From positions 5,247,001-5,311,000 of the forward strand of contig NC_092680.1 of assembly GCF_964355755.1 (NCBI RefSeq): 64,000 nucleotides of DNA. The letters are read 5' to 3'. The stretch's first letter is position 1. Every line of letters starts with the position of its first letter. The position numbers were made by a program, and so were the translations under genes. Positions 396 through 61,155 of this stretch are shown one piece after another. Origin of the DNA: Antedon mediterranea. Taxonomy: Eukaryota > Echinodermata > Crinoidea > Comatulida > Antedonidae. Below the pieces are notes generated by a model. It was not told where the DNA came from and searched no databases. It saw nothing but the letters and a program-made list of their open reading frames with translations.

Positions 396-3300
396 ATGGC
401 GAATTCGGAAGCAGATGTTAGCATGGAAAACGCTACTTTAAATGAAACTTTGGCAAATGCCACCGGTAGAATCCCATCTACTCCCGAAGGAATGGCTGTG
501 GCATACAGCAGCCTTTTAATAATGGCTTTACTACCTATATTTGTTGGATCTTTTCGTTCTGTTAAGTTTTTAAAAGACCGCAAGGTAAGCCGATTTCACC
601 ACGCACCATACGGACGGGACGGGAACGAATGGGTGCAGGGTGCAGCAGCCTGTTCGAATCCACCGGACTGATAGGCCTACTAGGCTAGGTCCTGCCTGGG
701 GCTGAGTGCGAACAGCTGTATTTCTAAGCACATATAATAATGTGGTTATTGGTGTAAATTATTATTATTTTCTATCGTCACTGTTTACCGTGCGTGTATA
801 TGTAACTAAGTAAAAGTTTTAAATATTTTTAGATTTGAAATAACAATAACATCGAAATTGATTTGATTGATTGATGTGAATCTGATAAATAATAATGATA
901 TTATGATGGTCTTTAATTTATAAATAAAACGGTTATATATAAAATAATTATACAATAATACACTGATGATAAGTAAAAAGTGTTTTGTTTTTTTGTAGCT
1001 AAATGGAGAAGCAGTTGAAACGATGTCAAGTAAAGATGCGGCAATGTTCCCTGTATATGCCAGTGCTGCTCTGTTTGGTATTTACTTGGTATTTAAGGTA
1101 AACACCACCATAACATTCAGAACTTTTGGTAGTAGGGGAAAGACCACTAACAATTGGGAACCTTGCGATGATAGGGTCAACAACAACATAGTATGTATGC
1201 TTTGTGTTAACTAAACCAATTCAATCTTTCGAGCTTCTTAAATCTTAATCCTTGCTTAGAAACTTGCTTCTCTTCGACCAACTGTTGACCTGTCCTATTG
1301 TCCTCCATCTCTTTTTAAACTTAATTCTTTTGATAATAGTCAATATTTTTTCTTTCATATTTTTTCCACAATTTCAAGAATATTAAAATAATATTTTTAA
1401 CATTGTTTTCATTTGTTGTTGTTTGATTTCACCATTATATCAATGCACTATCAATACATTTATGATATTATTTTCACAATAACATATTGCAGGAATTAAT
1501 TTTCTAATACTCTGAAGATTAGTTATTAGATTATCTCATGACTTAGTTATCTAATGTCACATGTTTTATTGTACAGTGTAGCCTACAATGATGTAAGTAT
1601 CAATTAACATGTATAAATGTCTACCACATATTCTACCACGTAGTAAAAATGAAATTTTTTTTAAATTTATTAAAATATTTTCTCCATTGAAGTATATTCA
1701 CTACCATAATATATTAATTGAAGTACCGTAAATGTTTTGTTTGATTTTTTTATCAGAAGAGTCTTTAAACTTGCTGTATATCATAGTAGTTCAATATATT
1801 TGTCCAAAAAGAAATTCATTTGAAGATTAACTAAAGCCTATTTTGCACTAGTCAAATTTGTTAGCGCCAATCAAAAGCTTGTCAGCTTTAAATTATACGC
1901 ATACATATTCATGTTTCCATCTTTCTACAAAATATGCTTGCGTATAAGCTGGCACTTTGTTCCGCACGAACAGAAGTGGAAACAGACGTACAGTAACAAA
2001 GAAAGTTAAAACAGAGCTACAAAAATATTCAAAACAATTAATGGTGATTTTACTGAATTGATTAAACAACTTGAATAGAATAGAAAATACAATAAAGAAT
2101 TAAGGAAGTGTTTTGTTCTAAATGAACAGACCTTATCTTTGTAAATCTTATCTTTGCAGTAGACATTGTCTTTTTTGTATAAGCATAGAGAAATAAGATA
2201 ATAAAGACCTAATTAAATAATAGTTGTTTTATTTTTATTTTTTAGTTTTTTTCCAAGGAATACATAAACCTTTTACTGACGTTTTATTTCTTCTGTCTTG
2301 GAGTACTTGCTATTGCCCACATTCTTAGGTGAGTAATATCAAAATAATTACCTGGCCTGACTGTATTTTTAGTTTCTTTCAAATTGCGAAAATCACAATT
2401 TTTCTTTATATTTATTCCCTAACCATTTATGATACAAGGCTTTCTAGCAAGTTTGCTTATTGCTAAGCATTTGTTTTAATTTTGCCCACGGTACATTGAT
2501 GCTTGTAAAGGCGCTATATAATTTGAATTGTTAATGTTAATACAGTTTTACAAACATCTTACTTACAGACCTTTTGTTAATTTGTAACCATTGTTTTTCT
2601 TTTGATAGGTACAGTACATAGTCTTCACATTTTTCTTAAGCTCTGTCTACACTATCAAACTTTATGTGACAAAAAAGTGTGATGTATCCAAATATGGTAG
2701 TGATATGTTCATATATGGGCACATCACATTTTGTTGTTACCTAAAGTTTAATAGTGTAGACAGAGATTTACAGACTTTTTATTCATCAACGGTTTTGTTT
2801 TTCTTTTCATAGCCCTATTGTACACAAACTTCCAGACATTTTCACAAATGTTCCATACCACATGATATTCACACAAGGAGAGGGGGAACAAAAGGAAGGT
2901 AAAGTACAGATTGATTTGTTTTCTCTACAAAAATATGCAAATTAATTGCATGGATGAGCGCTTTTCTGTAAGCACTCATTAAATATGATTTATTTTTTAG
3001 GTTAATTTACACCTTTCTGTGATACTAATAGTAACTAATTTCATTGTTTCATTGATATGTTAATGTTTTTATTTATTATATTAATTACACAGTCGTGATG
3101 AATAATTGAATAATTTCATTCCATTAAACATTATTGCACTAAAAGACAATCATTAAAATATACTTTATATATTATTTTTACAGAAATAGTAAATCAAGAA
3201 TTTGATCGCAAAGACCTCTTGGCGTTGGTGGTATCAGCTGGATTTGGTATTTGGTACCTTGTTCAAAAAGTATGATTGCTTTCGTTTGTATACATTACAA

Positions 3301-6300
3301 TGTATCCTCAACTCCTGTTGATCTTTCTATAGTTTAACTACAATCTAAATCAAAACAATTTTGTGATTTTTTTCCTTCCAACACACACAATTACATTGTG
3401 GGTACTCCTAGAGAGTAAATAAACAAAAAACGTTATTAGTTATTGAGTAACCACATCCGGACCAAAACTTGTTCTTTTGACTGAGAAAGACCTGCCCAGA
3501 AAAGTCATGCACAAGAAAACCAAACATGGACACATAACCTTCTTGGCACATATAATAGGGACCTTTCTTTTTATGATGCGCCCCTAGACTGCTTGCCTGT
3601 GGTGTCAAAAATACATTTAATTCTGCATATGTTAGGAAATACATATTTGCATGCACAATATATGACTGTTGGGTTGCTTGCCACATTTTTGTGAAAACGA
3701 AAGGTCGACGTAATAGTGTCAACTTTCAGAGCAACTCTTCTTGTCCACATCTATGCTAACTTGTTTTTTATCCATAATGTTATAACATAGTCCTAAATCT
3801 TCAAGATCTAGATAGTGGTAGATTTATTGCTTTCCCTTCTCAACAAGTAGTTGATATTATATAACACCTAAATAAATTCCTGTCATTTGATTGGACGATT
3901 GTGGGTCACATGGCGTGCAATAGTACGCACTATTAAACGATCGTTTAATAGTACTTTTTGAAACATTTTTGTGTACGAAAAAAAAACGTCTCGCGGATGA
4001 AAAAAAATCTAGTACACAAATTATCCTATGATATGGCTATGTACTGTGAAATACAACAGCGCCACCTGTCGTCTGGTCTCAGTTTCATTTGTAAACACCA
4101 CCGTGAGATATGCAACAGCAGCAGATATTTGTATACGATTTGGACATTATGTACTAATTTCATTCAAAAAGGCATTTAAATTAGATCGTTTTTAGGATTT
4201 TGATTAATTAATGGGGACATCCCTACAAGACGTGGAATTGTTGGAAAAACCATAATTAGCTTAGATAAGTTCCAATTGTCTGTCGAAGTTTTGCCTTTCA
4301 GCCAAGCTAGTACTAGGCTACTAGGTCTAGCCTAGGCCATGCTAGTATTAGGCTAAGCCTAGCCTAGGCGTTTTAGCCTTGCTAGGCCTAGGATTGTTTG
4401 TTCGTTTGTTGACATAATTAACACAAAAGTAGGTGTGTTTACTAAATCCATATAAATATAACATTTAATATAACATTATTAAAAACCAAATGTTACTGTT
4501 TTTAATCAAATGTGTGTGAATGAAATGTAGTAAGCTTTGGCTAGGGCTACCTTTTATTTGATTCAAATAACTAGAATTTATTTAGATGTTATATAAAACA
4601 AATAATGAATGTTTTGTATTCGTGTAATGGTACAAATAATGGCACTTGGTGAATGATGAAAGGTTATATCAACTCGGCTTTGCCTCGTTGATATAACCTT
4701 TCATCATTCACCTCGTGCCATTATTTGTACCATTACACTCATAAACATTCATTATTTGTATACTACTGTATTTATTTACTATACTATGATTTACTAATTA
4801 CAATACATTTCTTGTCTATAGCACTGGATTGCAAACAATGTGTTTGGTCTTGCATTCTCAGTGAATGCTGTTGAATTCCTTCAACTCAACACTGTCATCA
4901 CTGGTTGCATTTTACTGGGTGGTCTATTTTTCTATGATATCTTTTGGGTCTTTGGGACCGACGTTATGGTTACTGTTGCTAAGTCTTTCGAGGCACCAAT
5001 CAAATGTAAGAGTTTTGTTTTCATTACATTTTTGTTTAAATTTAGAATCATTTAAATGAAACTGTATAATCAATTGAATTGATTGTTGGGTTAGAATCCC
5101 ATTAGAACGAATGATATTATTATTCAATGCAATACTTCATCCTTGTATATTTTATTTCCTTCCAGTGGTATTCCCGCAGGATCTGTTAGAAAATGGTCTT
5201 GCTGCCAATAACTTTGCAATGCTTGGTCTAGGAGACATTGTTATTCCTGGAATCTTTATTGCTCTACTTCTTCGATTTGATGTTAGGTAATTATGTTTCC
5301 ATTTTAAATTATGTCTTATTTACTTTCTCTTATAAATAAATTTGATTTGTGTACAACATTCTATTGGACTATTATTTTGGTGATAGGAGTAATTGTACAG
5401 GAGTAAGAGTGACGGATCAATTTATAAAGAGCCGTTATATTGATATTATTGACAGAGCTACCCAACTCTAAATGAAATAAATATAATAATTGTAATTTGG
5501 TTAACCGTCATGTTTCTAGCTTTTTGTATTAGGTGGTCTATCCTCTATCACTGTAGAACACCTATTGTTATTTTGTTTTTATAATATTTGTCTTTATATT
5601 TTATTTACTATAGTAAGAAGACAAACAGTCATTTGTATTTTTATTGTGGATTTTTTGCGTACATATCTGGACTTGTAACCACCATCGGCGTAATGCATTT
5701 CTACAAACATGCTCAGCCAGCTTTGCTATACCTTGTTCCCATGTGCATTGGATTCCCTTTGTTTGTGGCTCTTATCCGTGGTGAAATTAAAGATATTTTA
5801 AAGTAAGTGTCTTTTTTATTTCAATAAAATTTAGAAGCATTAATATTGGTGACTAAACTCACTTATGAATGTGTTTGGTAATCTTCTGTATATGCTTGTG
5901 TAATCCCACTTTTGGTCTAAATTCACAAACACGCATATCCCAGGATATAGTCCCAGTATTGACTTTTAGTCTGGTTGTAGGCCTCTCTCTAGCCAGTTCA
6001 GATGAGCTTTTACAAGAAATGCTCACCAATCGTTCCAGAGATTCCCCAGGTATAGTCCCACCCCTCAAAGTCGGTTCAATTTCGTGTTCTAGGGGGAGGG
6101 AGAAGGGGATTTTACCAGAGGATGTATGGTAATAGTAATAATAATAGTATATTGAGCAATGCTCTGTAACTGACAACATTCCAAATTTAGCTAAACTGTT
6201 TCTATTATCACTATAAATACAGAATATGTAGTATTTTACTTTCAATTAATTACTTATGTTATTGTATTATCAATAAACAATAGAAAATATTCAAGCGAGC

Positions 6301-41695: not shown

Positions 41696-41697
41696 GA

Positions 41698-42672: not shown

Positions 42673-42716
42673 AAGCTCTGTCTACACTAGTTTGAAAAAA
42701 GTGTGATGTGCCCAAA
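42673..42716 (-). mobile_element. Foldback MITE copy F, left end only
   Basis: AAGCTCTGTCTACACTAGTT, then GAAAAAAGTGTGATGTGCCC, after which the similarity stops. Confidence 0.75.
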
Positions 42717-43756: not shown

Positions 43757-43980
43757 CCGATGTTCCTCTTCGATATAACTCCGATAAATGGCAGGGCTAT
43801 ATCGGATGTAACGTTTAGTTCATATCCATTTGAACGCACGACGGGTTAAATCATATTAGATTTAATTAACTCTCGTATTCCTCCATATTGTTAACTCCGA
43901 TGTTCCTCTCCGATAACTCCGATAGCCCTCAGGGCTATATCTGATGTAACGTATAGTTCATATCCATTTAAAAGCACGAT
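43757..43980. repeat. Two diverged direct repeats, about 150 bp apart
   Basis: CCGATGTTCCTC, AACTCCGATA, CAGGGCTATATC, GATGTAACGT and TAGTTCATATCCATTT occur in the same order near 43757-43840 and 43907-43980. This may be two units of an old satellite or part of a mobile element. Confidence 0.75.
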
Positions 43981-46196
43981 ATAGGCCTATTTAACTCCGA
44001 AAGAGAAGAGTGTGTAAGAATGATTTTTTCCCGCATGAATGGCACCATTTTTACCCACGTGCGCGTGACCCGTGTCCCTTCCTATGTTTTAGTGCACCAT
44101 ACTTAGTCTTTTGTTTGTGCTTATTTTGTTTTTCGTTGATGAAAATAATACCATTTCCATCATTGAAAATGTACACCAATAGGATAGCTATGAACAATAC
44201 GAAGAACAATATGCAGTTGACTCGCTGGAGTTATTAGTTTCATGGCAAAATGTATGTGGTTTCAGTATTACAATTGAATCGATAATACTGTTTCCAAGTC
44301 TTTAAACACCTTACAATGATATCGGATGAGCCGCAAAATAAATGACAACAACTTCATCAATATTTAATTAAGGTGAAGACACCGGAACACGTTTGGATAT
44401 TAACAATTGATAACTTAACAGTTTCAAATGTCAAAAATTGCGATTTATTTAAGATTCAATAGTCTATAATATTATGCTGTACCTGTACCATCACAAAAAA
44501 AGTAATTTCAGTCTATAGTAAGTAATACATTTGAGACAATGGGTAGTTTAAACGGGTAAACTCTTCCACGTGCTGACGATATTGCGATTGAGAGTATCGA
44601 TATCAAATTTAAAGTTCTATCTCAATTGTACTGTATTCCTTGCAACTTTCATCAGTGATTACATTTGTAATGCAGATTACTGTTAGTGTTACAACATTCT
44701 CGTTGGCCACATTTGTATGTAACGGACTTATGTTTATATGTTTATACTTTATTTTAATATTTTATCGAAAATAATTAGATTCTCTTCAGAGTAAACAAAA
44801 GATGAACAACAAGTGGCTTCATATCGATATTAATATAAATATTACTTTGACTTTTATTATAGATATAGTTTGAGTAGTAAAGTAGCCTAGTAAAGCCACT
44901 CATCATATAGGTATTAATGCCAGGATCGATATGAGGAATGCATTATACGCACGAATCTTAGACAACAATATCAAGCCAATAAAAAAAAATAAAGACTATA
45001 AAGTAAACATTATGATTTAAAATAATTGCCTACGTTTTGTCTTTGAATCAAGTTTAGGTAGGCATATTGTCAAGCATGTAGCCTATTTTTACACCCATCC
45101 CTTCCCGCGGAAGCCCTAACTTTATTTATATTTTGAGGCTGTTGAGGCTTGGAACTAAAGAGTTACGGTGCGGATGAAAAAAAAGATAGGAAGGTGGTGT
45201 TTTGGATTATTCCCACACAGGATTATAAAATGCCTAGCGCTCAGTCACACTCATGTGGATGACCATCTCTATACCACAGCTGCTTGGCTTTTGTTTACAG
45301 CATTTTACATAATCCTTCAACACTTGTAACCATATTATATTTGCTTTAAACTTGCTAATCCGAAATAAGTGCGACTGGGAAAACTATGAATTTGATCTTG
45401 TATGTAATATCAATTGATGATGTTTGATTTTCGCATTAGAAACAAGTAAATCGATGCCAATCAAAAGAGATTTGTGTCACAGACACCTGGTAAAGTACCA
45501 AGAGGTTTATTAGGGAATTATCAGGGACCATGTCGAAATTATTCTATTACTGCAGTAACTGCATCTACTCACTGATTTTTTTTTTAAATGTAGAACTGTC
45601 ACTGCAGTAAACAAATTGTATCTTTTAAATAGTGGTACTGACACAGGTTAAAGAAAACGAGATGAAGTTTGAAGATTTGACATGACAAATTTTCATATAA
45701 TTTTGTATAAAAGAAAAAGAAGTATTGAAAAACGAAATTCGTGTAGGCCTAGGCCCATGTGAATATAAATATGAATGATAAGGAAGACATGATATTATGA
45801 TGGTCGTATATCAGATTTTGACTACTTCTGTTTCACACATACAAATAATTTTTTTTTTTTTTATTAATATTCCATGATAAGTAACTGGATATCTTGGGTA
45901 TGTTTCCGGCGCACCTGTACGGTTTCCAAGCCTGTTATCCGCTTTAACAATCGCAATATCCTGTCACTGAGAAGTATAGATTTCAATTGAGAAACAAGCA
46001 GGAGTCATAGATTAAATGAGAGTTAATTAACTTGAACCAATCAGTGGAATTAACATGCTTGACGTAACGCTGCACGACTACAAACAAGTGTTTGTGAAAC
46101 AAAGGACACCACTTAGGTTGAGATCGACTGATGTTTATTGTTATTAATTATTTGTATTAAATATTTATTGTTTTATTCTTATTCCGTATTATTATG

Positions 46197-46290
46197 CATT
46201 GCCATCATATTGATACTCTTGTAAGTCTATACTATAGGTTATACATTGCCATCATATTGATACTCTTGTAAGCCTATACTATAGGCTATA
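46197..46290. repeat. 47-bp tandem duplication (2 units)
   Basis: Units at 46197-46243 and 46244-46290 begin CATTGCCATCATATTGATAC and differ at two positions only. A C12 run follows at 46309-46320. Confidence 0.92.
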
Positions 46291-46377
46291 CATTAAATCA
46301 TGAAGCAACCCCCCCCCCCCACCCTTTTTCCTGGAGTGCCCTTTTCAAACAGAGTAAAATCAAACATGCCTATGTCT

Positions 46378-46645
46378 CATCAACATCGACTTCATCATCA
46401 TTCTCATCATCATCATCATCGTCATTCTCATGATAATGATCATCATCGTCATCGTCATCATCAGCATCGTCATTCTCATCAACATCATCGTCATTCTCAT
46501 CAACATCATCGTCATTCTAATCATTCTCATCATCGTCATTCTCATCAACATCATCGTCATTCTCTTCATCATCATCATCATCATTCTCATCATCATCATC
46601 ATCATCATCGTCGTCGTCGTCATTTTCATCATCATCATCATTCTT
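46378..46645. repeat. CAT/ATC microsatellite 2
   Basis: Imperfect CAT repeat with a secondary period, CATCGTCATTCTCATCAACA, seen several times. Histidine-, isoleucine- or methionine-rich open frames here are repeat artefacts. Confidence 0.95.
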
Positions 46646-47276
46646 TTTTTTGTCTTGTGTGAGTTCTTCTCACGTTTATTTAAATTCTCATTGATGAATA
46701 TAATATATACATATAAGTACATTTGTGACAACTAAAAGTAAGTGTTTAGAGTAGTTAAAATACAGGTATATTTACATAATAAGATGCCAGAATTCAGTAT
46801 TAACCATATATTTTCTCATTTAAAATTTTAGATACGATGTTAATTAAAATGTAGAAATGAAAAATGGCGGTAAAATACATGATTAAAATTTTCTTGTTAA
46901 ACTATCTTATTTGTGTTCTTATTTGTGTTCGAGTAGAGAGGCTATAAACTCAGGGGACGAAAATGTAGTATCCTCCCTGTTCACCAAGATAAGATGGATG
47001 GAATGAAAAAAAGAGGAATGCAATAGGTTGAAAGTTAGTTATTTAGAATGATAGCATGAAATGGTATATTTAATGAAAACCGTAAGGTTAGAGTCCATAC
47101 ACTGTGCAAGTCCAAGATGCAATTTTGGCTCTGTGTGTATGTGAGACGCTTCATACCCGATGTCATCTTAGTACAACTACTACTTACAATTTGTATTTAC
47201 GGTATAACATATTGCAAATATATAAAAATATAATAGAAGTATATATATTGAACAAATACACATACCTATAGATTAA

Positions 47277-48312
47277 ATTCTCATCAACATCAACATCATC
47301 GTCATTTTCATCAACATTATCATCATCGTTATTCTCATCATCGTCATTCTCATCAACATCAACATCATCGTTCTCATCATCATCATCATAATCATCATCA
47401 TCGTCATTCTCATCATCATCGTCATCATCGTCATTCTCATCATCGTCATTCTCATCAACATCAACATCATCGTCATTCTCATCATCATCGTCGTCATTCT
47501 CATCATTATCATCATCGTCAGTCTCATCATCATCGTCATTCTCATCATCATCATCATCGTCGTCGTCATTCTCATCATTTTCATCATCATCATTCTCATC
47601 AACATCATCGTCATTCTCATCAACATCATCATCATCGTTATTCTCATCATCGTCATTCTCATCAACATCAACATCATCGTTCTCATCATCATCATCGTCA
47701 TCATCATAATCATCATCATCGTCATTCTCATCATCGTCATTCTCATCAACATCATCGTCATTCTCATCATCATCGTCGTCATTCTCATCATTATCATCAT
47801 CGTCATTCTCATAATCATCATCATCATCATCGTCATTAATCAACATCATCATCGTCATTCTCATCATCATCGTCATCATCGTCATTCTCATCATCGTCAT
47901 TCTCATCAACATCAACATCATCGTCATTCTCATCATCATCGTCGTCATTCTCATCATTATCATCATCGTCAGTCTCATCATCATCGTTATTCTCATCATC
48001 ATCATCATCGTCGTCGTCATTCTCATCATTTTCATCATCATCATTCTCATCAACATCATCGTCATTCTCATCAACATCATCATCATCGTTATTCTCATCA
48101 TCGTCATTCTCATCAACATCAACATCATCGTTCTCATCATCATCATCGTCATCATCATAATCATCATCATCGTCATTCTCATCATCGTCATTCTCATCAA
48201 CATCATCGTCATTCTCATCATCATCGTCGTCATTCTCATCATTATCATCATCGTCATTCTCATAATCATCATCATCATCATCGTCATTAATCAACATCAT
48301 CATCGTCATTCT
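47277..48312. repeat. 1-kb CAT/ATC microsatellite 3 with 451-bp higher-order duplication
   Basis: About 1,035 bp of CATCATCGTCATTCTCATCA-type variants. The pattern from 47401 recurs 451 bp later (47401-47861 against 47852-48312), with only about one difference noticed (GTCATT against GTTATT at 47992). This shows a recent duplication of a whole block rather than simple slippage. Long Asp/Asn/Glu-rich or Met-rich minus-strand open frames follow from the repeat; they have no flanking gene structure. Confidence 0.93.
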
Positions 48313-48319
48313 TATCAGT

Positions 48320-51300
48320 CGCACTCTTTATCCTTGATCATCACCATCGCCATTGTTGTTGTCATTATCAGCACCACCATTATTTTGTTTTCATATCTTA
48401 TTTTGAAAAGATAAATTGTGATTGTTTTGAATGAAATGATACCAAATAGTTTCAGTTTGATGTGATAGCTTCAATTCTGGCTGTTTTATTTGTTATTTTT
48501 TTTCATTCTTTCTGGTATGTATTATGACATTTCAGTACCAAAATAATTTAATGTAAAACATGTTATCAGAACAGTGAAATGAATCTGTATAATTTTTAGT
48601 TATGAAAACTCCACAAGGACTTAGCATACACAATTTTTGCAGAGCTATTTTAGAAAAAAGTGCAGATAATCGAGTAAATTCCATGTTATAGCAATTTCTA
48701 AAAATTTATTTTCTTTGTTAGCTTAAATTTATTCATAGAAAAGTAGTGGCCATGATATTCTCCTTCAAATCAGTACTTGGGACAGAAAAGCATCGAATTT
48801 AACATCACGCCCTTCGCTCTTCATTAGACATTCAAATACAACGCATGCTTAATAATCACTTAAAACACGCGAAGACTAAGTGCGTTTCCATAGCGATCGA
48901 TCGAGCTCTTCGAATCCACTGATTGGATTTTATTAGCGGTAAATGAGTTTCGACTCGCAATAACGGAAATGAATGATCATACAGATTGCTGCACGTGTTC
49001 AAGATATAGTTTGAAACGATCTTTTATGCCTAGGCTAAAATAGTTATCAAAGCAATTCGGCATTCATCCTTTGTCTGGGAACAATGCACTATAGTATCCA
49101 GCATTGTCCGCGTTAATCAAGAAATGGGTCATAATTGTAATATGTCGTTTATCCATATTGTTAAAAATTCCCGCAATGTTTTTGTATTGTTGATGTTATT
49201 ATTAATGAATTGGCCTTGCGCACGATCTCATATTATTTTGTCTTACCGAAGCATGATCAACTAAGATGCATTACTTTAATTTGAATTTAGATGAATTAGA
49301 AGTAGTAGCATGAAAACATTAAAATGTAGAGTTTTAATAGTTGGATGTGAAGGTCTTGAGACCAATTTAACTACCCTTATATTATATTATTATTTTTCCA
49401 TATACAATGTTTCGCTTAATAAAAACACAGATTCATGTAACATTAATGTTTATAGACTGTGAAAGCATATGCTTAACATAACTGTTTATCGACGTTTCTG
49501 TGAAATCATATAACCATCTTAAAAATGTTAACATTGTATGGAATTGTTATTCTTAAAAATCAATGCCCTTTGAAATTGTTTTCAAAATAGATTATCACAG
49601 TATTTGAAACTATTTATTATTATTAATCTGTTGATGTTTAGTTTTTGTTTTCATAAGTCTAGATTGTGTTATTACCTACGGCAATAAGAGATGTTGAGTT
49701 TTGCTTTGTCTCTGAGACTACAGCTAAGCCAAAACCTAATTTCAGTTTTTCCTAATAATTCCAGTTTTCTTTGCATAATGCAAGTTGCACTTGTACGGTA
49801 GACGTATTGTAGAGTTCTGTTATTCAATTCAATACAACTTAATTATCCCAAACTGGGTAATCCATTTGGTGGTGATACAAAAAACCATAAAATACGTTAA
49901 CAAAACAAGCACAATCATCATCATAAACATCTAAAATATGTTACAATAAACTAGAAACAAATAGCACACCAATAAAATTCATAAAGAAGCCTTAAAATGC
50001 CATTAAAAAATTACAGAGGTTTTTATTATTAGAAAGCAATATCTTCTTGAGTGCCATTGTATAGGTAATGTTTCACAATGGTACGATTATTTTGAAATCA
50101 CAGGCAACATAATTCGATTTACACACAATGTTTTTAATAAATAAAACCTTTGGCAGAGAGAGAAATGAGAGTATAGAAAAGTGAGCTTTTTTGTGAAGAA
50201 ATATTTTACATTGTAAGTGTAATGCGTTCATTAATTTCAATTCAATCTCAGTATGTGTCTATTATAAACATGGAAGAGTAAATGTTTTCTATGGAAACAA
50301 AAACTTGTTGAACATCTCTTTCTTGATAAACAACCTTATTTTCTTGTGGGTTCCTTACAAGAGAATGTCCCATAATGGATTTTATTTCACAGTTTCCGTC
50401 TCATTAAACTCCGTCTACTCTTCAAACTTTATGTGACAAAAACATGTGATGTGCACATAAAACATCATATCACTACCATATTTAAGCATTACCGTACTTA
50501 TTATACCATTTGGGCATCACATCATATTTTCTTTGTCAAACTAGTTTGATAGTGTAGACATAGCTTTAAGGTTGTGAATCAATGGGCACAGATTTTGCTA
50601 CAAATGATTACAAACTAAGACAGTAGATAGAGACAAAGGTCGGATACATTACATGCTTTACTACGAAGTATACCAGCCTATGTTTTAAAAAATGGTGAGA
50701 ACACGAGTAAGGTTGTATTATTAAAACCAGCAAAACACAGTATAAATTAAAATTTAATTATAGACGGTATGCCTGAAATAATACTACACACTAAAATGAT
50801 ATAGTGGTGCTTATTTTACTTATTTAATTACATTATGATATGGTAATACGTGAAATATGCTGGTACATGAACAATTCATGTTTATTGTTAAAAGAAAGTA
50901 CGGGCATGTAAAACAAATAAATTTTAATATTAATTTATTGTAATTTACTTAGTTTAAACATAGGGTACTGCTAACGGAATAATAGTCTTCATAATTATGC
51001 TTTTAATTATGTCAAAACAGCTCAATAAAAGTGGGGGCTAATCCCTGTTACACAGCTCTCTGTTGTTCAACGTAATAATCCATGGTAGGAATATAAATAC
51101 CGCCACCTAGCGGTGGTAGAGGAGGATTGTGAAAGTGCACGAAACGTAGATATAGGCGCGGCCCAATCGAAATATTAAATAAATATTTACAATTAATAAT
51201 TAAACCTAATTCAACACTATATGATGTAGGGTTATTATAACCCTACATAATATTAATGTATACCACTGAGATAAAAGTTGACTGTGCCGGAGCAGAATTT

Positions 51301-51860
51301 AGGTCTATCTAATTGCAGAGAAAACCATTATTTCTGTAGGCCTATTTATTATGACATTATTTAGGGGATCTAAAAGTAAATTTGATATTAAAAAAATAAT
51401 ACAAACGGTTTCGTAGGCGCGCGCCCGAGTCTCTGATTTCTTCATACTCGATAAATAATGGTAACATTTTCTAGGCCACAATGAACAATATTGTTTTCAC
51501 CGATTCCATCCCTGACAAAAATAATTTGTTTTGCACAACCAAGCAGCATGCGCTAGCAAGCAATATATATATATATATAATAATAAATCAATGCTTTATT
51601 TTAATTTATATTTTTATTTTGTAACAGAGTGCCGCTGAATTGATTAAAAGGGAATACTTTTTGCCATCTTAGAGAATTTTCAATTAGTACCTAATTGATA
51701 TTAATAATTATTATTATTATCATATGAATAGTAAACATAATTAAGTTGATACTAATAAAAATAGAAACTAAAAAAAATATCATTTTTATTGTTTAAAATG
51801 ATTGTAACTTGTAGTGAATATAGTATTTAATAGACAATAAGTGACCAATCAATTTATGAT
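48320..51860. other. Non-coding stretch upstream of ARFRP1
   Basis: AT-rich DNA with no recognised exon. The segment around 49820-49985 starts ATTCAATTCAATACAACTT and may be a retroelement end. One foldback element copy lies at 50404-50567. Confidence 0.5.
50404..50567 (+). mobile_element. Foldback MITE copy G
   Basis: A complete but diverged copy. The left arm CTTTATGTGACAAAAACATG and the right arm TTTGTCAAACTAGTTTGATA surround a centre longer than usual. Confidence 0.85.
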
Positions 51861-51864
51861 AAAT

Positions 51865-52035
51865 AATGCAAAAGAGGGCGATCGACCATGATCTATAATG
51901 GATTTTTTTTATAAACGCGATGAGAAATATGACGCGTTTAGCTACACGACACGACGCGACGCGACGTGAATTGCTTCATTTGAACACGTTGAATTGAATG
52001 AATGATGTGGTGGTGTGGACGTGGATCAAGTTGAA
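51865..52035 (+). promoter_or_regulatory. Presumed ARFRP1 promoter region
   Basis: A local rise in CpG. AGAGGGCG lies at 51873-51880, GACGCG at 51931, and a 5-bp tandem of ACGAC/GCGAC at 51946-51965. A CTAGGCCTAG tract follows, and then an acceptor-like TTTTTTTAAAG just before the coding exon, so a 5'UTR intron is possible. The transcription start is not resolved. Confidence 0.35.
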
Positions 52036-52039
52036 TAAA

Positions 52040-52330
52040 ATACGCCTAGCCTAGGCCTAGCATTAGCGTTTGCTGCCTTGTATGTAGCCTAGTAACATAC
52101 TTAGCAGTTAGTGGAAGTGCCCTCTCTAGACTACTAATAGGCCTAGGCCTAGTGCCAATTCCATCTAGCTAACCCTAGCTAGTAGTAGCCTAGGCCTAGT
52201 AGGTTAAGTGAGGATCCAAGTGAGGCTAGTTAGGCCCTGGTGGGCCTAGGCTAGGCCCTAGCTAGGCATAATAACATAGGCCTAGAGGAATTACTATTAG
52301 TATTGTATTGGCATTTAGGCCTAAAAATTA
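52040..52330. repeat. CTAGGCCTAG-rich tract upstream of ARFRP1
   Basis: Dense overlapping CTAGG/GCCTAG words, the same low-complexity class as 1-115 and 56215-56515. Confidence 0.85.
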
Positions 52331-52421
52331 TATTAAAATTATTACTACTAATGAATAACAAAAATGTGTTTTCATGTTATCGTTAATTAAGTTATTATTT
52401 TTTTAAAGATACGAAAACAAA

Positions 52422-55201
52422 ATGTTTGCTCTTCTATCTGGCCTTTGGAAGTTTATGTTTAGGAAAGATGAATATTACATCTTGATTCTTGGTTTGGACA
52501 ATGCAGGCAAAACAGTAAGTGAACATCAAGCTATCTGTGTAATACCCAGCATTCCAAGTACCACCGAACATTTATAATTACTATACGAATTCGCGGAGTA
52601 TGGAAAGAAAGGGCATCCGAAAGAAATATGTTACTTACAGTACACAACAAATATAAACCCCTTACTCATGAAACATTGAATGGAGTTGTATTTGAATGTG
52701 TGCTTCTTTTTGTTTTAATACAGACATACTTGGAACAATCACAAATGCAGTTTGATAAACATTACAAAGGTGGACAACTTGACAAAATAACAACAACAGT
52801 TGGATTAAACAGTAAGAAGTAAAATCATTTTTTGTGATATGTGGTAAAATTTGCACACAGGTGGCTGAACCCACTGTCACCCAGGTGACTGAACCATGTA
52901 ATAGATATCCCACGTTCTTACAATGTCTTTGACTTTTATTGCAGTTGGTAAAATTGATAGGGGTCATGTCAGATTGAATTTCTGGGATCTGGGAGGTCAA
53001 GAAGAACTACAGGCTCTATGGGATAAGGTAACATTTACAATTTACATTATTTTATATTACATATACCTTAAGCAGGGAGATGTAACTCCCTGTCTTATGC
53101 AAGGACAGTAGAATGATAGGGCCTAGAAAAAACCCTGTTTTCGATTTTCACATCTTAATTTTAAGCTCTGTCTACACTATTGAATTACATCGACAAAAAA
53201 GAGTGATGTGCCTAATATGGTAGTAATATGACATCATCGTGTCCATATATGAACACATCACATTTTGTTTTCACATGAAGTTTGAAAGTGTGGACAGAGC
53301 TTTAAGCTCACTCTACACTATTATCAAACTTTACGTGACAAAAAATACATGTACGATATATGTACATAATGATGTCATATCACTACCATATTTGGGCACA
53401 TCACACCTTTTTTGTCAAACTAGTTTGATAGTGTATAGACAGAGTTTTAGACATTACAGTTTTTTGGCTTAAACTAACTCTAGTCTTACCTCATTGTATA
53501 GTACTATGCAGAGTCACATGGTGTGATCTATGTCATTGATTCATCGGATAGTAGCAGATTAGACGAATCAAGAGAGGCATTTGGTGAGTGGCTTGTGTTT
53601 GTGAGCTATAGACGCATGTGCTAGATGCATGAGCTAGACACCTGAGCTAGACACCTGAGCTAGACACCTGAGCTAGACACCTGAGCTAGACACCTGAGCT
53701 AGACACCTGAGCTAGACACCTGAGCTAGACACCTGAGCTAGACACCTGAGCTAGACACCTGAGCTAGACACCTGAGCTAGACACCTGAGCTAGACACCTG
53801 AGCTAGACACCTGAGCTAGACACCTGAGCTAGACACCTGAGCTAGACACCTGAGCTAGACACCTGAGCTAGACACCTGAGCTAGACACCTGAGCTAGACA
53901 CCTGAGCTAGACACCTGAGCTAGACACCTGAGCTAGACACCTGAGCTAGACACCTGAGCTAGACACCTGTTCTATATTTGTGAGCTAGATGCAATGCATG
54001 TTTAAATTTTCACAGTATTTGTAAACTATTATTTTCAGATGAGATGCTTACTCATGAAACATTGAATGGAGTTCCGCTACTGGTGCTTGCAAATAAACAA
54101 GATGTTGATGTAAGAATAAACAAGAATTGATTCAGCATTTACAAATTCTAATCAAACTTTATGTGACAAAAAATATATATATATATGGACACGATTATGT
54201 CATATCACTACCATATTTAAGTACAATATCACTACCATATTTGGCACATCAAACTAGTTTGATAGTGTAGACAGAGCTTTTTAACTGTTGGGAGTGTCCT
54301 GTCTTGGATCTATTAATGTGTACCTTTTATATATTATGTTTTTGTCCCACTTTTTAGGGTTGTTTATCAGTTGATATCATCAAGGAAACTTTTAATCAGA
54401 GTTCTTCAAAGATTGGCAGACGAGATTGCCATGTACAAGCAATTTCAGCAAAAACTGGGTAAGTTGTACAGAACTACTACTTAGTTCTTTTACTACTATA
54501 GTATACGATACTACCACGGAAGAGTGAAATTACATTTTAGATGTATCCTCATATGTACCTTATGCACTTGTAAATTATGACCCACTATAGACCCCTGAGA
54601 GAGGTGCGTCATGGATGCATCATTTACAAATAATTATTGACGTCAAAAAACCTAGATGGTACATCACATAACGAACAATGGTGTGTCAATGTCACTTTAC
54701 CACCCACCATATCATAACATGGTCACAGTGCATCAAAATGGGTGCATCATTGTCAGGTAAAGGTAAGTCATATTTTTGGTGCACAGGTGCGTCATGATAT
54801 TCATTTGTCCGATACGCACGCCTTGTATAATAGTGGGTCATACAATTGACAAGTGAATTAGGAGTTTTTAGTACATTAGAAACCCTATTAAGGGGACAAG
54901 TTCAGGACCAAAGTGATTTGTGAGTTTTAATTTACACTTAAAGCTCTGTCTACACTATCAAACTTTATGTGGCAAAAAAAATGTGATGTGCCCATAACAT
55001 ATGGACATGACGATGTCATATCACTACCATATATGAGCACATCACACTTTTTTTTGTCAAACTAGTTTAATAGTATAGACAGAGCTTAAGACTTATACTT
55101 CTTTTTCTAGGGATGGTATTCATGAATGCATTGATTGGATGAAGAACATGGTTGTTAGAAATACAATACGGAGACCCCCAACTGAGAAGGACATTACCTG
55201 A
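52422..55201 (+). CDS. ARFRP1: ADP-ribosylation factor-related protein 1, 7 coding exons
   Basis: ARF-like small GTPase of the trans-Golgi that acts upstream of ARL1 and golgin recruitment. Exons: 52422-52514, 52724-52811, 52945-53027, 53502-53583, 54039-54109, 54358-54458, 55111-55201. All are in frame with GT-AG ends, giving 202 aa (human 201). GTP-binding motifs: GLDNAGKT (24-31), WDLGGQE (74-80, catalytic Q79), NKQD (134-137), SAK (169-171). The N-terminus MFALLSG has no Gly2, so it is not myristoylated. Met-Phe suits N-acetylation, as for this family. The C-terminus [10 protein letters not shown] matches the family. Introns are loaded with repeats: foldback elements in introns 3, 5 and 6, a 13-bp minisatellite in intron 4 and a copied piece of exon 5 in intron 1. 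AATAAA at 55265-55270 is the likely polyadenylation signal. Confidence 0.97.
52661..52687 (+). repeat. 27-nt exact copy of ARFRP1 exon 5 within intron 1
   Basis: Identical to 54047-54073, the exon 5 stretch encoding LTHETLNGV. The flanks differ on both sides. It sits 36 nt before exon 2, and its frame runs open into exon 2. Confidence 0.95.
53163..53302 (-). mobile_element. Foldback MITE copy H (ARFRP1 intron 3)
   Basis: A complete copy beginning AAGCTCTGTCTACACTATTG and ending TGTGGACAGAGCTT. The right arm is of the CACATGAAGTTTG type. It is immediately followed by copy I in the opposite orientation. Confidence 0.88.
53304..53448 (+). mobile_element. Foldback MITE copy I (ARFRP1 intron 3)
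   Basis: A complete copy. The left arm is AAACTTTACGTGAC and the right arm TTGTCAAACTAGTTTGATAG. It is back to back with copy H, about one base between them. Confidence 0.88.
53631..53968 (+). repeat. 13-bp minisatellite, 26 apparently perfect units (ARFRP1 intron 4)
   Basis: The unit GAGCTAGACACCT is repeated 26 times (338 bp) with no visible change. Single diverged units flank it (GAGCTATAGACGCATG, GAGCTAGATGCAATG), showing where it grew from. The homogeneity means recent expansion, so length variation between individuals is likely. Confidence 0.97.
54149..54279 (+). mobile_element. Foldback MITE copy J (ARFRP1 intron 5)
   Basis: The left terminus is missing before ATCAAACTTTATGTGAC. The right arm AAACTAGTTTGATAGTGTAG is intact. 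The centre carries a second CACTACCATATTT word. Confidence 0.85.
54941..55087 (+). mobile_element. Foldback MITE copy K (ARFRP1 intron 6)
   Basis: One of the most complete copies. AAGCTCTGTCTACACTATCA lies at the left, with a TTTATGTGGCA arm, a central palindrome ACATATGGACATGACGATGT, and a right arm CAAACTAGTTTAATAG ending AGACAGAGCTT. It ends 23 bp before the exon 7 acceptor. Confidence 0.9.
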
Positions 55202-56037: not shown

Positions 56038-59000
56038 ATGTCACCGCGAAAAAAACAAGGCGATGTTCCTTCCTTTCTTGATGAGACAGTTCCACCATGT
56101 GAACACTGTGAAAAGTATTTCTTTTATCAAAATTCAACGTTCAATTTATTTGATGCTACATTCCTTGGCATTTCTGTGGCCACATATTTAATGGATATTG
56201 TTACAGGTAGGACTAAAGGCTAGGCCTAGCACTCGCGCAGTACAAACATCGCACTGCGCCGTCTGCGGCCATGCATGATGTGTGCACTGGCCCGGTGTAC
56301 AAAACTAGACTTGGGCTAGCCTAGCTAGGACATTGCCTATTATATTACTGTGAGCATACACAACCGCTTTTAGCGGGCTGGCGGTTTAAGGTCCAAATTA
56401 TAAGCCTAGGCTATGCCAACCAAGTGAGTTTTAAAATAAAATTACATAGCCTAGCCTAGGCCTCCTACCTACCTAGGGCTAGGCTAGGAGTCGGACTAGG
56501 CCTAGCCTAGGCTACATGTATTCATTTTTAATTTTTTTTTTCTGCTGTGTGTGAAACAAAAAAATACAATAATTTGTTTATGAATCATTTTAATTTTGAA
56601 ATAGATATGATCGTATGTGTGCAATACTTCAGCGCGCCCGAGTACTTCTGGGGATTTCTTACATTGTTTTTCACACTCGTTCCATCTGTCATTGTACATG
56701 TGTTCAGCGCTCGCTGGTATTTGTTAGATGATGATGACATGACCACATCTGATTGGCTGCTACACATATTTCAACTCGGTACCCTCAAAAGGTGAGACAG
56801 TTTTGCGGTAATGACAATGTACTTGTTAGACTAAATATTAGTAAATGTATTTTTATATTTTGCGAGCTTTGCCTTTTTGGTCCTTGTATTCATATTTGTC
56901 ATAAAATAATTGTTATTTAATGATGATGAATAAACAACTAGTCTAGTAGTAATAATGTAAGGTTGTTTTGTTTTTATATATTTAGGCAAATTGTCAAGGA
57001 TAACCATACATAAGCGAATTCATTATGATTCACTATCCTTCTTAAATCCCGTTCACAAGAGAAACATATAAACAAGATGCTCTACATAAACAAAGTCTTA
57101 TTACAAGTCATTTTGGGAGTGGAGTTATAATTTGTCAGAAAAATTCACAACATATGACAAGACTTGAACCCAGGACACTTAAATTGGTAGCCAAGCATCT
57201 TAACCACCAAGCCACAAGGTTTGTGGTATTTCTCCTTTCTCATCAATATTTGTTTTCCTTTTTCTGTTCAGATATGTATGTGTGTTCCAGACCGGTATGG
57301 ACGCAAGGCATTCTCATGACTCTAGTGATTTTGAACTTTTATATCATCAGCAAAGCGACGTTTCAATGCTACGTTTATTTGAGTCGTTCATGGAATCTGC
57401 TCCGCAACTTGTTCTTCAACTCTACATAATGGTTGCCACAAATGATGAGAATTACTTTACAGGTACATTTTAATAAGACATCATAGTCGGGGTTACCTAG
57501 GTGTACTGGTCCATTCAGCCCCTGTCGTTATGGACAGACGAACGGGCACTGTTTGGTGACAGCACTCGACATGAAGGGACCCTAGTGGAGAAAAGAGTTA
57601 TTGTATGTGCCATCCACACCTATTCAGCCCAATTAGGCTGCAAGTCATAGGTTATTACCCCACATTTAAAATGTTGATTTAAATTTACATTTGTTTAAGT
57701 TTAAATGTTAGATGCTGATGTTCTTATTGTCTAGTTAGTAGTTATTCTTTAGTGTTATTGTTCCAAGGTATTATTTTACAAAGTTATTCACATTTCTAGA
57801 TATACCTTGTTTGATTCAATCTGTAATAAATATAGAATCTCTAACATATTGGAAAAAAAATAAAACTGTGCACAAACATTATATGGTTGAATAATTACTT
57901 AATTTAAGAACACAATTTATTTTTGGAAATTGAAGAATAAAATACCCTTTATAAATGCAATTTTTGTTTTCTAACTAATTATTTTTCTATAATTTATAAA
58001 TTTTATTTTTTAGGTGTATCAGCTGCTGTGTCACTCATATCCCTATGCTGGGCAATTGCAGCTTACAGTAAAGCACAACGCAAGATGCGCATTGACAAGG
58101 CTCACATCTCATGGCCAGGCCTCGTCTTCCAGACGATATGGCGGATTGGAATGGTGTCATCACGTGTAATGTCACTAGTACTGTTTGCTTCCATATTTAA
58201 AGCTTACATCTTTCCTGTTGTTGGTAATTATTATTGTTTTACAATTTAAAAAAAAATATATTTATTCTTGGAAAATTATTACAAGTTTTGGTACATGTGT
58301 AAAAAAAAGGCAAAGTTGGACTACAGTACTAAACTAGGTAAACAGAGATTCAACATAAAGTATTGGTCAAAAAAATTTTGGCACACATGGCGTTTCATAT
58401 GTATACTTGAGCTGGATTCTAGTCACAGACAAAAATCTATACTAACAACATAAAAAAGACATTGATTAGAGACTAAGAAAGAGAGTTTTATCCAAAGAAT
58501 CCAAAGATTTATTTATTTACTCTTGAATTCCATAATTGAAGAATGATAATTGCTCACCTTGTAATATGTTCTAATTTAATAATTTTGTTGCCTTCTTAGC
58601 TGCCCATTGGTTAGTTATGTTCTTGTGGGTTTATCAACAAGACACTGACTTCTGCGCAACATGGCCGGAGGAGCGTCTCTTCAACATCACCATCAGCATC
58701 ATCTACATCTTCTGTTTCTTCAACTTGAAGGAGGGTAGCTCTAGATTCCGTATAGTTGCCTTTTATTCCATCATATTCATAGAAGACATGATTCTTGTGA
58801 TTCTTTGGAGTATTTACAGTGAACCAAATAATCAATATAATGTGGCCGGCTATTCAATTGTTTTTGGTGGATTTTTTGTAGGTTAGTCAATGCTTTTTCT
58901 TGTTTATCATGGTACAAATGATTTGTAAAATTAATATTTTAAACCATTTCAACAAAGAAATGTTCTATGGTTTATTTGTACTTGTTTCATCTATATTTAA

Positions 59001-61155
59001 AATATATTATAGGTTATATATTTCCTTTATGGCTATGCGGTGTATGTGTAAGCCCTACCCCTGTACAGTCAACTCTCCCAAAGCCAGACTTTTCTTGAGG
59101 CCACAAATTCATTTTTACTATTAGAAATACATTCCAAATACCAGACTTTCTGGAACTCCAGATATATTAGGGCAGTCCAACAGTATCTGGGATTTGGAGA
59201 GTTGACTGTATAACCTTCCTTGCTCAGCCGATATTTAATGTCTGTTCCATAAAAGCTTTTTGAAGTTCATTTTACATACATAGAAACTGTACACCTGCGC
59301 AACATGGCCGGCACAGCACAGGCCCATTTTTTTCTCCAAATTTACCAAATGATGGAATGTTTACTGTTTTCTTGCAGGAATTTTAAGCATGGTATTATAC
59401 TACAGGTGTTTCCATCCAAGTGGACAAATTTCACTCTCAACCACTATTCTCAAAGACATTGAAAAGCACTGCCCTCATGATCATGTGTACTCTGAATCAA
59501 CACCTGGATCTTGTGGCCTAGATGCTGAGATCTCGTTCAGATCGAGGTCAGTCTCTCCGCACAAATCCCCCAGAGACTTCAGCTTCAACAGTGGCAGTAT
59601 TTACCAGTTAAACTACAGCGTTACATCAGAGAAATCAACCCACATGCAGCATTCATACGACTCTTGTAAGCCAGCCATCCAGAGAAGTGTTAGTGATAGT
59701 TGTCTGCTTGATCTCACCACCAGAATGGAAACCCAGAACGAGCTGGAGATGTCACATGTAAATTGCCTTGTTCAAGAAGAGATAACTTATGAACTTGGGC
59801 TCACTTTCACAGACTATCGATTAAATTGTACTGGTTTTGCAAGTATACTAGCTGAGCATTATGATGCAGCAAAAGAGAACGTTTTAATGGATAGTAGTCT
59901 TCAGGAGGGAAGTTTAGAAAACCACCAAGAATGTATTCATGCAAGAAGTAATCAAGATTTAGAGGATTCTATTGATATGACACAAGGGTCGTCCTTGAAG
60001 GATATGCCAAACATGTCTTTACAGTCACCAGGTTTGATGACCAGGTATGAAGCAGAGAAGATTTATCTGGATATTCTTGAACAAGGACGTCCGCCAGTGC
60101 CATCTCAAAGAAAATTAGTTTTCAAATCGGGAGAAGATATGTCAAGAAAGATAGAAGATTCTAAGAAAATGAGGAAGAAACATGTTGTGGAGCCAACTAC
60201 AGAAAGGATAAAAAAGAAACAGAAGCCTTACATTCTATGGAAGCTGGATAAACAAAGAAAAGGTGTGGCAGCTGAGAAAGAAATGAAGGTGACAGAAGGA
60301 CAACATGAAAACATTCCTAACACAAAGAAAAACAGTTCAACTGAGCTGAATAAGGAAGAGAACATGGTTAATCATAACGGAGAATGTAAAAATGAATGTT
60401 TTCCATCAAAGAGTGAAAGGAATTCAGTAAATGTAGATTTTCCAACTTCTATTTTGAAAGAAGTCAACCCACCAAATTATCAATCTGAACAAGTGGAGCC
60501 AATATTGGCACCAAATGAGGATTATCACAAGACATTCCAAACAAAGGAGAAAACAGCTATTATGCTTAGTCTTGGACATGGAAGACCTCAAGAATTTGAG
60601 ACTATTCCAGGGCTTAAAAACAGACCAATGCGTAAACATAGTTTTAAATCTTCAGTTTTAAATGAGGCTACTCCAAGTCGTAAACACAGTTTCAAATCTT
60701 CAGTTACCAGTGAAAATATTCCAAGCCGTAAACAAAGCTTTAAATCGTCAGTTTTGAGTGAGGCTACTCCAAGCCGTAAACACAGTTTCAAATCTTCAGT
60801 CATAAGTGCAAGACGTACAAACAGCTTTAAATCATCATCTATGAAGCCAAGCATTGATAACAAAGAAAATAGTCCCTGTAAATCAAACAGCAAGAAAGAT
60901 CCTAAAACCTTCCATACTGTTCTCCGTGAAGTAACGCCTGTCAATGCTCATGCATCAAAACCCACCAATGTCACTTCTACATTTGATAGCAAACAAGCAT
61001 ATTCCTCTCCATCTGTAAGAAGTTTACAACTCTCACTCTTCAGTCCTCCTGATAATACAAAATCTCCGGGAACTGCGGAGAAAAAAGGCAGACGATCGCT
61101 TGGGAAGATTCCACTTAATACTGTTGCTCACAAGATTAGTATGTTTACAAATTAG
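56038..61155 (+). CDS. XK-related multipass membrane protein (XKR4/6/7 type) with very long C-terminal tail, 6 exons
   Basis: Member of the XK-related family; several relatives (Xkr8, Xkr4, Xkr9, CED-8) scramble plasma-membrane phospholipids when cut by caspases. Exons: 56038-56206, 56605-56791, 57272-57462, 58014-58223, 58600-58881, 59378-61155; all joins are GT-AG and in frame, giving 938 aa. An in-frame TAG at 56023-56025 precedes the start. Family marks: a DATFLGISVATYLMDIVTD first membrane segment, FSARWY after the second, FESFMESAPQLVLQLYI in exon 3, WRIGMVSSRVMSLVLFASIF in exon 4, and ALLxxY-like repeated membrane segments through exon 5. The membrane core ends near residue 360. The remaining roughly 570 residues, all in one exon, are polar and probably disordered, whereas human XKRs total about 370-650 aa. 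The tail carries a 16-residue tandem repeat (residues 765-824) and possible caspase sites. Scrambling activity is an inference. Confidence 0.93.
56215..56515. repeat. CTAGGCCTAG-rich tract at start of XKR intron 1
   Basis: Overlapping CTAGG/GCCTAG words mixed with a CpG-rich piece (56233-56275, ACTCGCGCAG...GCACTGCGCCGTC). It lies directly downstream of the first exon and is the same class of tract as those at HM13 and ARFRP1. Confidence 0.8.
57045..57219 (-). mobile_element. tRNA-derived SINE copy 2 (XKR intron 2)
   Basis: On the minus strand, GGCTTGGTGGTTAAGATGCT and the B box GGGTTCAAGTC match the SINE at 41698-41952. The body TAACTCCACTCCCAAA also matches. The AAAT tail is not seen, so the copy is 3'-truncated. 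It ends about 50 bp before the exon 3 acceptor. Confidence 0.8.
59064..59210. mobile_element. 147-bp TA-flanked MITE (XKR intron 5), mariner/Tigger-like
   Basis: Inverted ends TACAGTCAACTCTCC and GGAGAGTTGACTGTA, with TA at both borders as expected for Tc1/mariner insertion. CCAGACTT words inside each half form a weaker inner inverted repeat. The CAGTCAACTC start recalls Tigger/pogo ends. Confidence 0.75.
60631..60840 (+). repeat. 48-bp coding tandem repeat in XKR tail
   Basis: Units start at 60631, 60679, 60727 and 60775, each encoding a version of RKHSFKSSVLSEATPS. A degenerate fifth unit (RTNSFKSSS) starts at 60814. Each core is R-x-x-S, and the R-K-x-S form fits a PKA-type kinase site (Ser768, 784, 800, 816, 829). 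Confidence 0.93.

What the first reader, a model, noticed from the sequence alone, without database searches (positions are those of the whole stretch)
396..61155. Four neighbouring genes whose human counterparts are all on chromosome 20q
The sequence shows HM13, ID, ARFRP1 and an XKR4/6/7-type gene in a row on one strand. In human, HM13 and ID1 are adjacent at 20q11.21, XKR7 lies in the same band, and ARFRP1 is at 20q13.33. If this is an echinoderm or other invertebrate deuterostome, the HM13-ID adjacency would predate vertebrates. This is a clear case of retained linkage, possibly held by shared regulatory DNA.
Basis: partly seen in the sequence, partly recalled or inferred. Interest (0 to 1): 0.72.

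Follow-up and report, generated by a model that had tools for sequence, protein, structure and literature searches.

The report
Old gene neighbourhood in a feather star

Summary
The four genes are there, in the stated order and strand: HM13 (396 to about 5.8 kb), a single-copy ID gene (33,581-33,943), ARFRP1 (about 52.4-55.2 kb) and an XKR gene (56,038-61,155). The genome is very probably a feather star: 12-gene Hox cluster with Hox4, Hox6 and two face-to-face posterior genes, GC near 33%, 11 chromosomes. HM13, ID and ARFRP1, plus RTF2 found 12 kb outside the window, have human counterparts on 20q, and HM13-ID keeps human order and orientation (human positions mostly recalled). The XKR leg is weak: the best XKR4/6/7-type gene lies on another chromosome (C6), and a topology test rejects the window gene as XKR4's closest relative (AU p=0.016), though a lineage-specific duplication is not excluded. 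Of nine further 20q families placed genome-wide, one (CSE1L) is clearly on this chromosome, one is ambiguous, and seven have their best match on C1, C6 or C8. The retained linkage is local, not the whole arm. Best reading: passive retention of ancestral linkage with scrambled order, plus a probably ancestral HM13-ID adjacency. No evidence for shared regulation was found or could be obtained. A second likely ancestral pair, NTRK-AGTPBP1, lies just upstream.

The parts
396..5806 (+). HM13 (signal peptide peptidase) gene, at least 7 coding exon pieces; catalytic motifs YD, GLGD and PAL visible
   Evidence: recalled human HM13 as tblastn query; SPPL2A the one solved chain matched, 67 bits
5900..33500 (.). 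27.6 kb HM13-ID interval with no detected protein domain
   Evidence: (17 of the 22 best-scoring ORFs listed scanned, 0 Pfam hits at E 0.1)
33581..33943 (+). ID (inhibitor of DNA binding) exon 1, HLH without basic region, GTAAGT donor after it
   Evidence: PF00010 profile positions 15-53 only; single copy
34000..52400 (.). 18.4 kb ID-ARFRP1 interval with no detected protein domain; holds TCATCA-type arrays
   Evidence: (14 of the 22 best-scoring ORFs listed scanned, 0 Pfam hits at E 0.1)
52422..55198 (+). ARFRP1, seven exon pieces
   Evidence: recalled human ARFRP1 as query; ARF/ARL family among solved chains
56038..61155 (+). XKR-family gene, six exons, 938 residues with a tail of about 570 residues; probably not the XKR4/6/7 orthologue

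Best explanation
This is a piece of an old linkage group that an echinoderm and human both inherited. HM13, ID, ARFRP1 and (just outside the window) RTF2 stayed on one chromosome in both lineages while inversions scrambled their order; in human they are spread along 20q, in this genome they lie within about 78 kb. HM13 followed by ID in the same orientation is most simply an ancestral adjacency. The XKR gene is a second XKR gene of this genome that lies here; it is probably not the counterpart of XKR7. Shown here: gene identities, order, strand, single-copy ID, location of the other XKR gene and of the further 20q families. Inferred: common ancestry of the linkage, since no other animal genome could be examined and human positions are recalled or taken from one paper.
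For: Gene models. RTF2 by Pfam in the right flank (PF04641, 155.8 bits; ORFs). CSE1L, recalled as 20q13, on the same chromosome but 14.3 Mb away, as expected if linkage outlives order. A peroxidasin-like gene about 100 kb from ID; human PXDN and ID2 are both at 2p25 (PXDN recalled, ID2 listed in PMC6585022, passages seen). The same passages place ID and XKR families on the Hsa 1/2/8/20 paralogon. PMC7269912 (passages seen) reports that amphioxus and vertebrates keep linkage while gene order is scrambled, and that vertebrate chromosomes include mixtures of two or three ancestral groups.
Against: Only one of nine further 20q families is clearly on C11; C11 is 6.3% of the genome, and one or more of the eight unambiguous families would land on it with probability 0.40 by chance, so chromosome-wide enrichment is not shown, only local clustering. 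Genes of other human regions are mixed in: NTRK, AGTPBP1, ESCO, DDX24, ELP1. No outgroup genome was examined.
Confidence: 0.7

Rival explanations
1. HM13-ID is held together by selection: enhancers of ID lie in or beyond HM13 and in the 28 kb interval, so HM13 is a bystander of an ID regulatory block.
For: Same order and orientation as recalled for human; large flanking intervals without detected genes on both sides of ID (partial scan); ID is a developmental regulator, the usual kind of target gene.
Against: No conserved non-coding element, chromatin or expression data available; BMP-response motif scan found 0 (uninformative). Intervals of this size also arise from repeats, which are frequent here.
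Confidence: 0.2
2. The co-location is a chance meeting of genes in a genome whose ancestral groups have fused into 11 chromosomes, noticed after the fact.
For: 11 chromosomes hold 99.7% of the assembly; the wider 20q families are scattered; genes of unrelated human regions are interleaved.
Against: Three of five single-orthologue genes in 284 kb on one human arm has P about 1.2e-4 (recalled 2.33%), and HM13-ID adjacency with the same orientation is unlikely on a chromosome of roughly a thousand genes (my estimate from about 12 genes in 284 kb).
Confidence: 0.1
3. One reading: all four genes are counterparts of 20q genes, XKR being an XKR7 orthologue or co-orthologue, and the block is retained as a whole.
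For: XKR7 is listed at 20q11.21 (PMC6585022). The window gene scores better to XKR4 (220 bits) than to XKR8 or XKR9 (154.5, 127.8). The two XKR genes of this genome are as alike (41.6%) as the C6 gene and XKR4 (41.3%), and a topology joining them, which would make both co-orthologues of XKR4/6/7, is not rejected (AU 0.165).
Against: The C6 gene scores 275.3 bits to XKR4 against 107.6 and 77.3 to XKR8 and XKR9 and groups with XKR4 in the best trees, though with support of only 61-74%. The window gene as XKR4's closest relative is rejected by AU (p=0.016), not by KH (0.075) or SH (0.094). The other 20q families are scattered.
Confidence: 0.07

Closest known systems
Hsa 1/2/8/20 paralogon (PMC6585022, passages seen)
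   Same: Holds the ID and XKR families, as does this locus; YTHDF, STMN and MYT families are also named there.
   Different: In this genome the member families are split: ID on C11, the best XKR4/6/7-type gene and stathmin on C6, YTHDF on C1.
Chordate and bilaterian ancestral linkage groups (PMC7269912, PMC11310086, PMC11175523; passages seen)
   Same: Linkage kept, gene order scrambled over more than 500 million years.
Ancient microsynteny held by regulatory constraint (genomic regulatory blocks; search listing only)
   Same: Developmental regulator (ID) beside an unrelated housekeeping gene (HM13) with long intervals.
   Different: No regulatory evidence; HM13-ID was not found as a reported pair in the two searches made.

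Membership tests
HM13 / signal peptide peptidase | A22B domain with YD, GxGD and PAL motifs (motifs recalled) | tested here: met
   FFYDIFWVFGT, LGLGDIVIPG and HAQPALLYLVP readable in the aligned exons
ID family | HLH without the basic DNA-binding region | tested here: met
   PF00010 matched at profile positions 15-53 of 53; 44.8% to recalled human ID2
ID family | single pre-duplication copy | tested here: met
   1 strong match, 2 weak matches, of 19 candidates scored
ARFRP1 | ARFRP1-like rather than ARF/ARL sequence along the whole protein | tested here: met
   44-74% identity in seven pieces covering residues 1-201 of a recalled human ARFRP1; no ARFRP1 among the 60 of 176 solved sequences shown (ARF/ARL at most 124.8 bits)
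XKR4/6/7 subfamily | closest relative of XKR4 in a tree | tested here: not met
   C6 gene groups with XKR4 (support 61-74%); window gene as sister of XKR4 rejected by AU p=0.016, not by KH or SH; joining both genes of this genome not rejected (AU 0.165)
XKR8/9 subfamily | groups with XKR8 and XKR9 | tested here: inconclusive
   topology not rejected (AU p=0.186) but not best
Whole human-20q block | other 20q families on the same chromosome | tested here: not met
   1 clear of 9 (CSE1L); POFUT1-like ambiguous, on C4 and twice on C11; EIF6, TPD52, YTHDF, PRPF6, STMN, NELFCD and XKR4/6/7-type best elsewhere, with weak extra hits on C11 for YTH and stathmin
Crinoid genome | ordered Hox1-Hox11/13a including Hox4 and Hox6, with Hox11/13b and c face to face; GC about 33% | tested here: met
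   order as stated, last two genes + then - (convergent); PMC7351957 passages report this for Anneissia japonica and say hemichordates differ in that orientation; GC 33.22% there. Hox labels assigned by eye. In A. japonica the pair lies more than 360 kb from the other ten, here about 47 kb
Crinoid genome | echinoderm-specific Hox11/13d and e present (PMC6307216, passages) | tested here: inconclusive
   none recognised among the 31 homeodomains read by motif out of 104 listed hits; 7 of the 20 further pieces did not show the motif and were not classified
Genomic regulatory block | conserved non-coding elements or shared chromatin domain between HM13 and ID | not testable with these tools
   no second animal genome, Hi-C or expression data held
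Ancestral linkage | same linkage in several other invertebrates | not testable with these tools
   The genome search and genome contigs hold prokaryotes besides G000 (tool descriptions)

The most novel reading that the evidence does not exclude
HM13-ID is a pre-vertebrate regulatory block: the adjacency has been kept for over 500 million years because ID control elements lie in or across HM13, and the neighbouring NTRK-AGTPBP1 pair is a second such block in the same 110 kb.
Probability: 0.17. Interest if true: 0.55.

Novelty: new member of a known kind. Interest (0 to 1): 0.3.

Why it matters
It gives a concrete, checkable case of an adjacency (HM13-ID, and NTRK-AGTPBP1 beside it) that probably predates vertebrates. 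It also shows that genes of human 20q lie on at least four chromosomes of this genome (C1, C6, C8, C11); either human 20q was assembled from several older pieces or this lineage broke them up, and outgroups would tell. It corrects the XKR assignment that would otherwise overstate the case.

Tried and rejected
Considered an assembly artefact: the locus lies inside a 22.3 Mb contig with no N in the 284 kb read. Considered lophotrochozoan origin (Trk receptor, AT-rich): set aside on my reading of the Hox set. Considered hemichordate: two published hemichordates have 23 chromosomes (PMC11175523 passages) and differ in orientation of the last two Hox genes (PMC7351957 passages), so less likely; against crinoid, the echinoderm-specific Hox11/13d and e were not recognised. 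Considered genes hidden between HM13 and ID: 44 ORFs were listed for the two intervals and 31 of them (17 and 14) scanned without a Pfam hit. BMP/SMAD motif (recalled) gave 0 hits against 0.1 expected, uninformative. POFUT1 as a further 20q test was ambiguous (C4 and two C11 loci read by eye as POFUT1-like, C2 as POFUT2-like). Literature (listings): no paper on HM13 microsynteny (10 listed, 1 hit, an accession-number match as one search shows). For NTRK with AGTPBP1/AGBL1, one search gave one paper (PMC10445033), whose passage lists NTRK3, AGBL1 in a row in echidna; one search gave two papers, by title not on synteny. No chromosome-scale crinoid with 11 chromosomes was seen among the 7 papers or the 20 listed of 252. 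A table of human chromosomes against linkage groups was not in the passages of PMC7269912 seen.

Dropped before counts: multi-copy families (NTRK, CCP, ID, XKR, ESCO, PXDN, TRIM-like) were left out of the 3-of-5 count; POFUT1 was left out of the eight-family chance figure. Weak extra hits on C11 for YTH (30.4 bits) and stathmin (34.0 bits) were not counted as the family's location.
Full report
Observation. The window is G000:C11:5,247,001-5,311,000, inside a 22.27 Mb contig. On the + strand it holds HM13 from the ATG at 396 to about 5.8 kb, an ID exon at 33,581-33,943 followed by a GTAAGT donor, ARFRP1 in seven pieces at 52,422-55,198 and an XKR gene in six exons at 56,038-61,155 whose joined exons give one open frame of 938 residues. 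Between them no further gene was detected, with the limits that the ORF score puts HM13 and ARFRP1 exons in the range of noise and that the Pfam scan took 31 of the 44 ORFs listed.

What animal. The homeobox search listed 104 hits, 12 of them within 380 kb on C2. Cut out and read by eye these 12 run Hox1 to Hox8, Hox9/10 and three Hox11/13 genes; the middle one of the last three is reversed, so the end pair is face to face. Gene labels are my reading. PMC7351957 (passages) reports for the feather star Anneissia japonica the ordered genes hox1 to hox11/13a with hox4 and hox6, Hox11/13b and c face to face, unlike hemichordates, and 33.22% GC; there the pair lies more than 360 kb away, here about 47 kb. 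Window GC is 31-36%. Eleven contigs hold 353.5 of 354.4 Mb (lengths; sum), so the haploid number is probably 11; two hemichordates have 23 (PMC11175523 passage), and PMC3308324 says most echinoderms have 36-46 diploid (passage), so this would be a strongly fused karyotype. That feather stars have 11 is my recollection. Against: Hox11/13d and e, said to be shared by all echinoderm classes (PMC6307216 passage), were not recognised among the homeodomains read, which were a part of the list. I conclude a crinoid with about 0.85 confidence.

Orthology. ID is single copy: one match at 275.9 bits, then two at 29.7 and 27.6, so it is the pre-duplication counterpart of human ID1-ID4, which PMC6585022 lists at 20q11, 2p25, 1p36 and 6p22.3 (passage). 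HM13 shows the three catalytic motifs and 45-84% identity per piece to recalled human HM13; the only solved chain matched is SPPL2A at 67 bits. ARFRP1 aligns from residue 1 to 201 of the recalled human protein.

The XKR gene. The genome has two XKR loci. The C6 gene scores 275.3 bits to XKR4, 107.6 to XKR8, 77.3 to XKR9; the window gene 220, 154.5 and 127.8. In a six-sequence tree C6 pairs with XKR4 (SH-aLRT 69, bootstrap 61), without XK 74 and 68. AU rejects the window gene as XKR4's sister (p=0.016), KH (0.075) and SH (0.094) do not. Not rejected are a duplication within this lineage (AU 0.165), XKR8/9 affinity (0.186) and the window gene as sister of C6 plus XKR4 (0.429). The two genes of this genome are 41.6% identical, the C6 gene and XKR4 41.3%. 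With so few sequences the fair claim is: probably not the XKR4/6/7 orthologue, and C6 is the better candidate. The C6 gene lies 0.4 Mb from the stathmin gene (C6:24.05 Mb).

Neighbourhood. In 110 kb on each side (ORFs read) I find, in window-relative coordinates: an NTRK receptor (about -43 to -33 kb, +, perhaps with a leucine-rich exon at -52 kb read by eye; kinase exons best to NTRK3 at 378.9 bits, first non-Trk hit MuSK at 275), an AGTPBP1-type carboxypeptidase (exons read at about -27 to -23 kb, probably on to -16 kb, -; 70% to a recalled AGTPBP1 segment; CCP5 110.6 bits), the four window genes, ESCO (64.2-69 kb, -), RTF2 (76.4-78.1 kb, -), a DEAD-box gene read by eye as DDX24 (78.9-84.4 kb, +, family by Pfam), a peroxidasin-like gene (133-143 kb, +; peroxidase domain, Ig domains by eye), ELP1 (152-165 kb, +) and a TRIM-like gene (166-174 kb, -, by eye). 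Human positions are recalled except those cited to PMC6585022: HM13 20q11, ARFRP1 20q13.33, RTF2 20q13.31, CSE1L 20q13.13, EIF6 and POFUT1 20q11, NELFCD, PRPF6, STMN3 and TPD52L2 20q13, NTRK2-AGTPBP1 9q21, NTRK3-AGBL1 15q25, DDX24 14q32, ELP1 9q31, PXDN 2p25.

20q is not retained as a unit. Nine further 20q families were placed genome-wide: CSE1L on C11:19.65 Mb; EIF6 and NELFCD on C8; TPD52 on C1; YTHDF on C1 (assigned by eye; weaker YTH hits on C6 and C11); PRPF6 on C1; stathmin on C6 (with a weaker stathmin-like hit on C11:21.3 Mb); the best XKR4/6/7-type gene on C6; POFUT1 ambiguous, C4 and two C11 loci. One clear of nine on C11, which is 6.3% of the genome, is no enrichment. The retained linkage is therefore local: HM13, ID, ARFRP1, RTF2, perhaps with CSE1L far away. 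Genes of human 20q lie on at least C1, C6, C8 and C11. Mixing of ancestral groups in vertebrate chromosomes (PMC7269912 passages) would explain this; breakage in this lineage would too.

Mechanism. The simplest account is passive: linkage survives because translocations are rare, order is lost because inversions are common. HM13-ID keeps order and orientation (human recalled) and is unlikely as a chance meeting on a chromosome of roughly a thousand genes (my estimate from about 12 genes in 284 kb). Whether selection on ID regulation holds it cannot be said from one genome. The NTRK-AGTPBP1 pair upstream, recalled as neighbours in two human paralogous regions and with NTRK3, AGBL1 listed in a row in echidna (PMC10445033 passage), is an equally good candidate for an ancestral adjacency and suggests that this stretch simply rearranged little.

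Verdict. Observation largely right, interpretation half right, one leg probably wrong. An ordinary kind of finding with a modestly interesting local adjacency.

Noticed in passing
left flank, G000:C11 about 5,204,000-5,231,000 (window -43 kb to -16 kb; loci L001-L004): NTRK receptor gene beside an AGTPBP1-type cytosolic carboxypeptidase, convergent; recalled as neighbours in human at 9q21 and 15q25, and NTRK3, AGBL1 are in a row in echidna (PMC10445033 passage), so probably an ancestral pair.
   Followed up: partly
G000:C2:7,827,700-8,206,240 (loci L012-L023): Ordered 12-gene Hox cluster including Hox4, Hox6 and three Hox11/13 genes, the middle one of the three reversed, so that the end pair is face to face.
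   Followed up: partly
G000, contigs C1-C11: Eleven chromosomes carry 99.7% of the assembly. [quoted passage not shown] PMC11175523 (passage) since infers it to be ambulacrarian from hemichordates, without mention of crinoids. This assembly could add the crinoid test.
   Followed up: no
window 53630-53969: Perfect 26-copy tandem array of a 13-base unit between two ARFRP1 exons.
   Followed up: no
window 38889-39160, 46377-46641, 47281-48317: TCATCA-type arrays between ID and ARFRP1, one with a 451-base higher-order unit; they give spurious long ORFs.
   Followed up: no
window 60631-60808: 48-base coding repeat in the long XKR tail encoding RKHSFKSSV-type units; function of the roughly 570-residue tail unknown.
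   Followed up: no
window 2624-2781, 11993-12169, 12986-13155, 54920-55105 and others: Short interspersed repeats with up to 47 self-matches within the 284 kb read, not identified.
   Followed up: no
G000:C11:21,300,221-21,300,397 (L049): A second, divergent stathmin-domain gene on C11 (31.4 bits), possibly a STMND1 relative (recalled).
   Followed up: no
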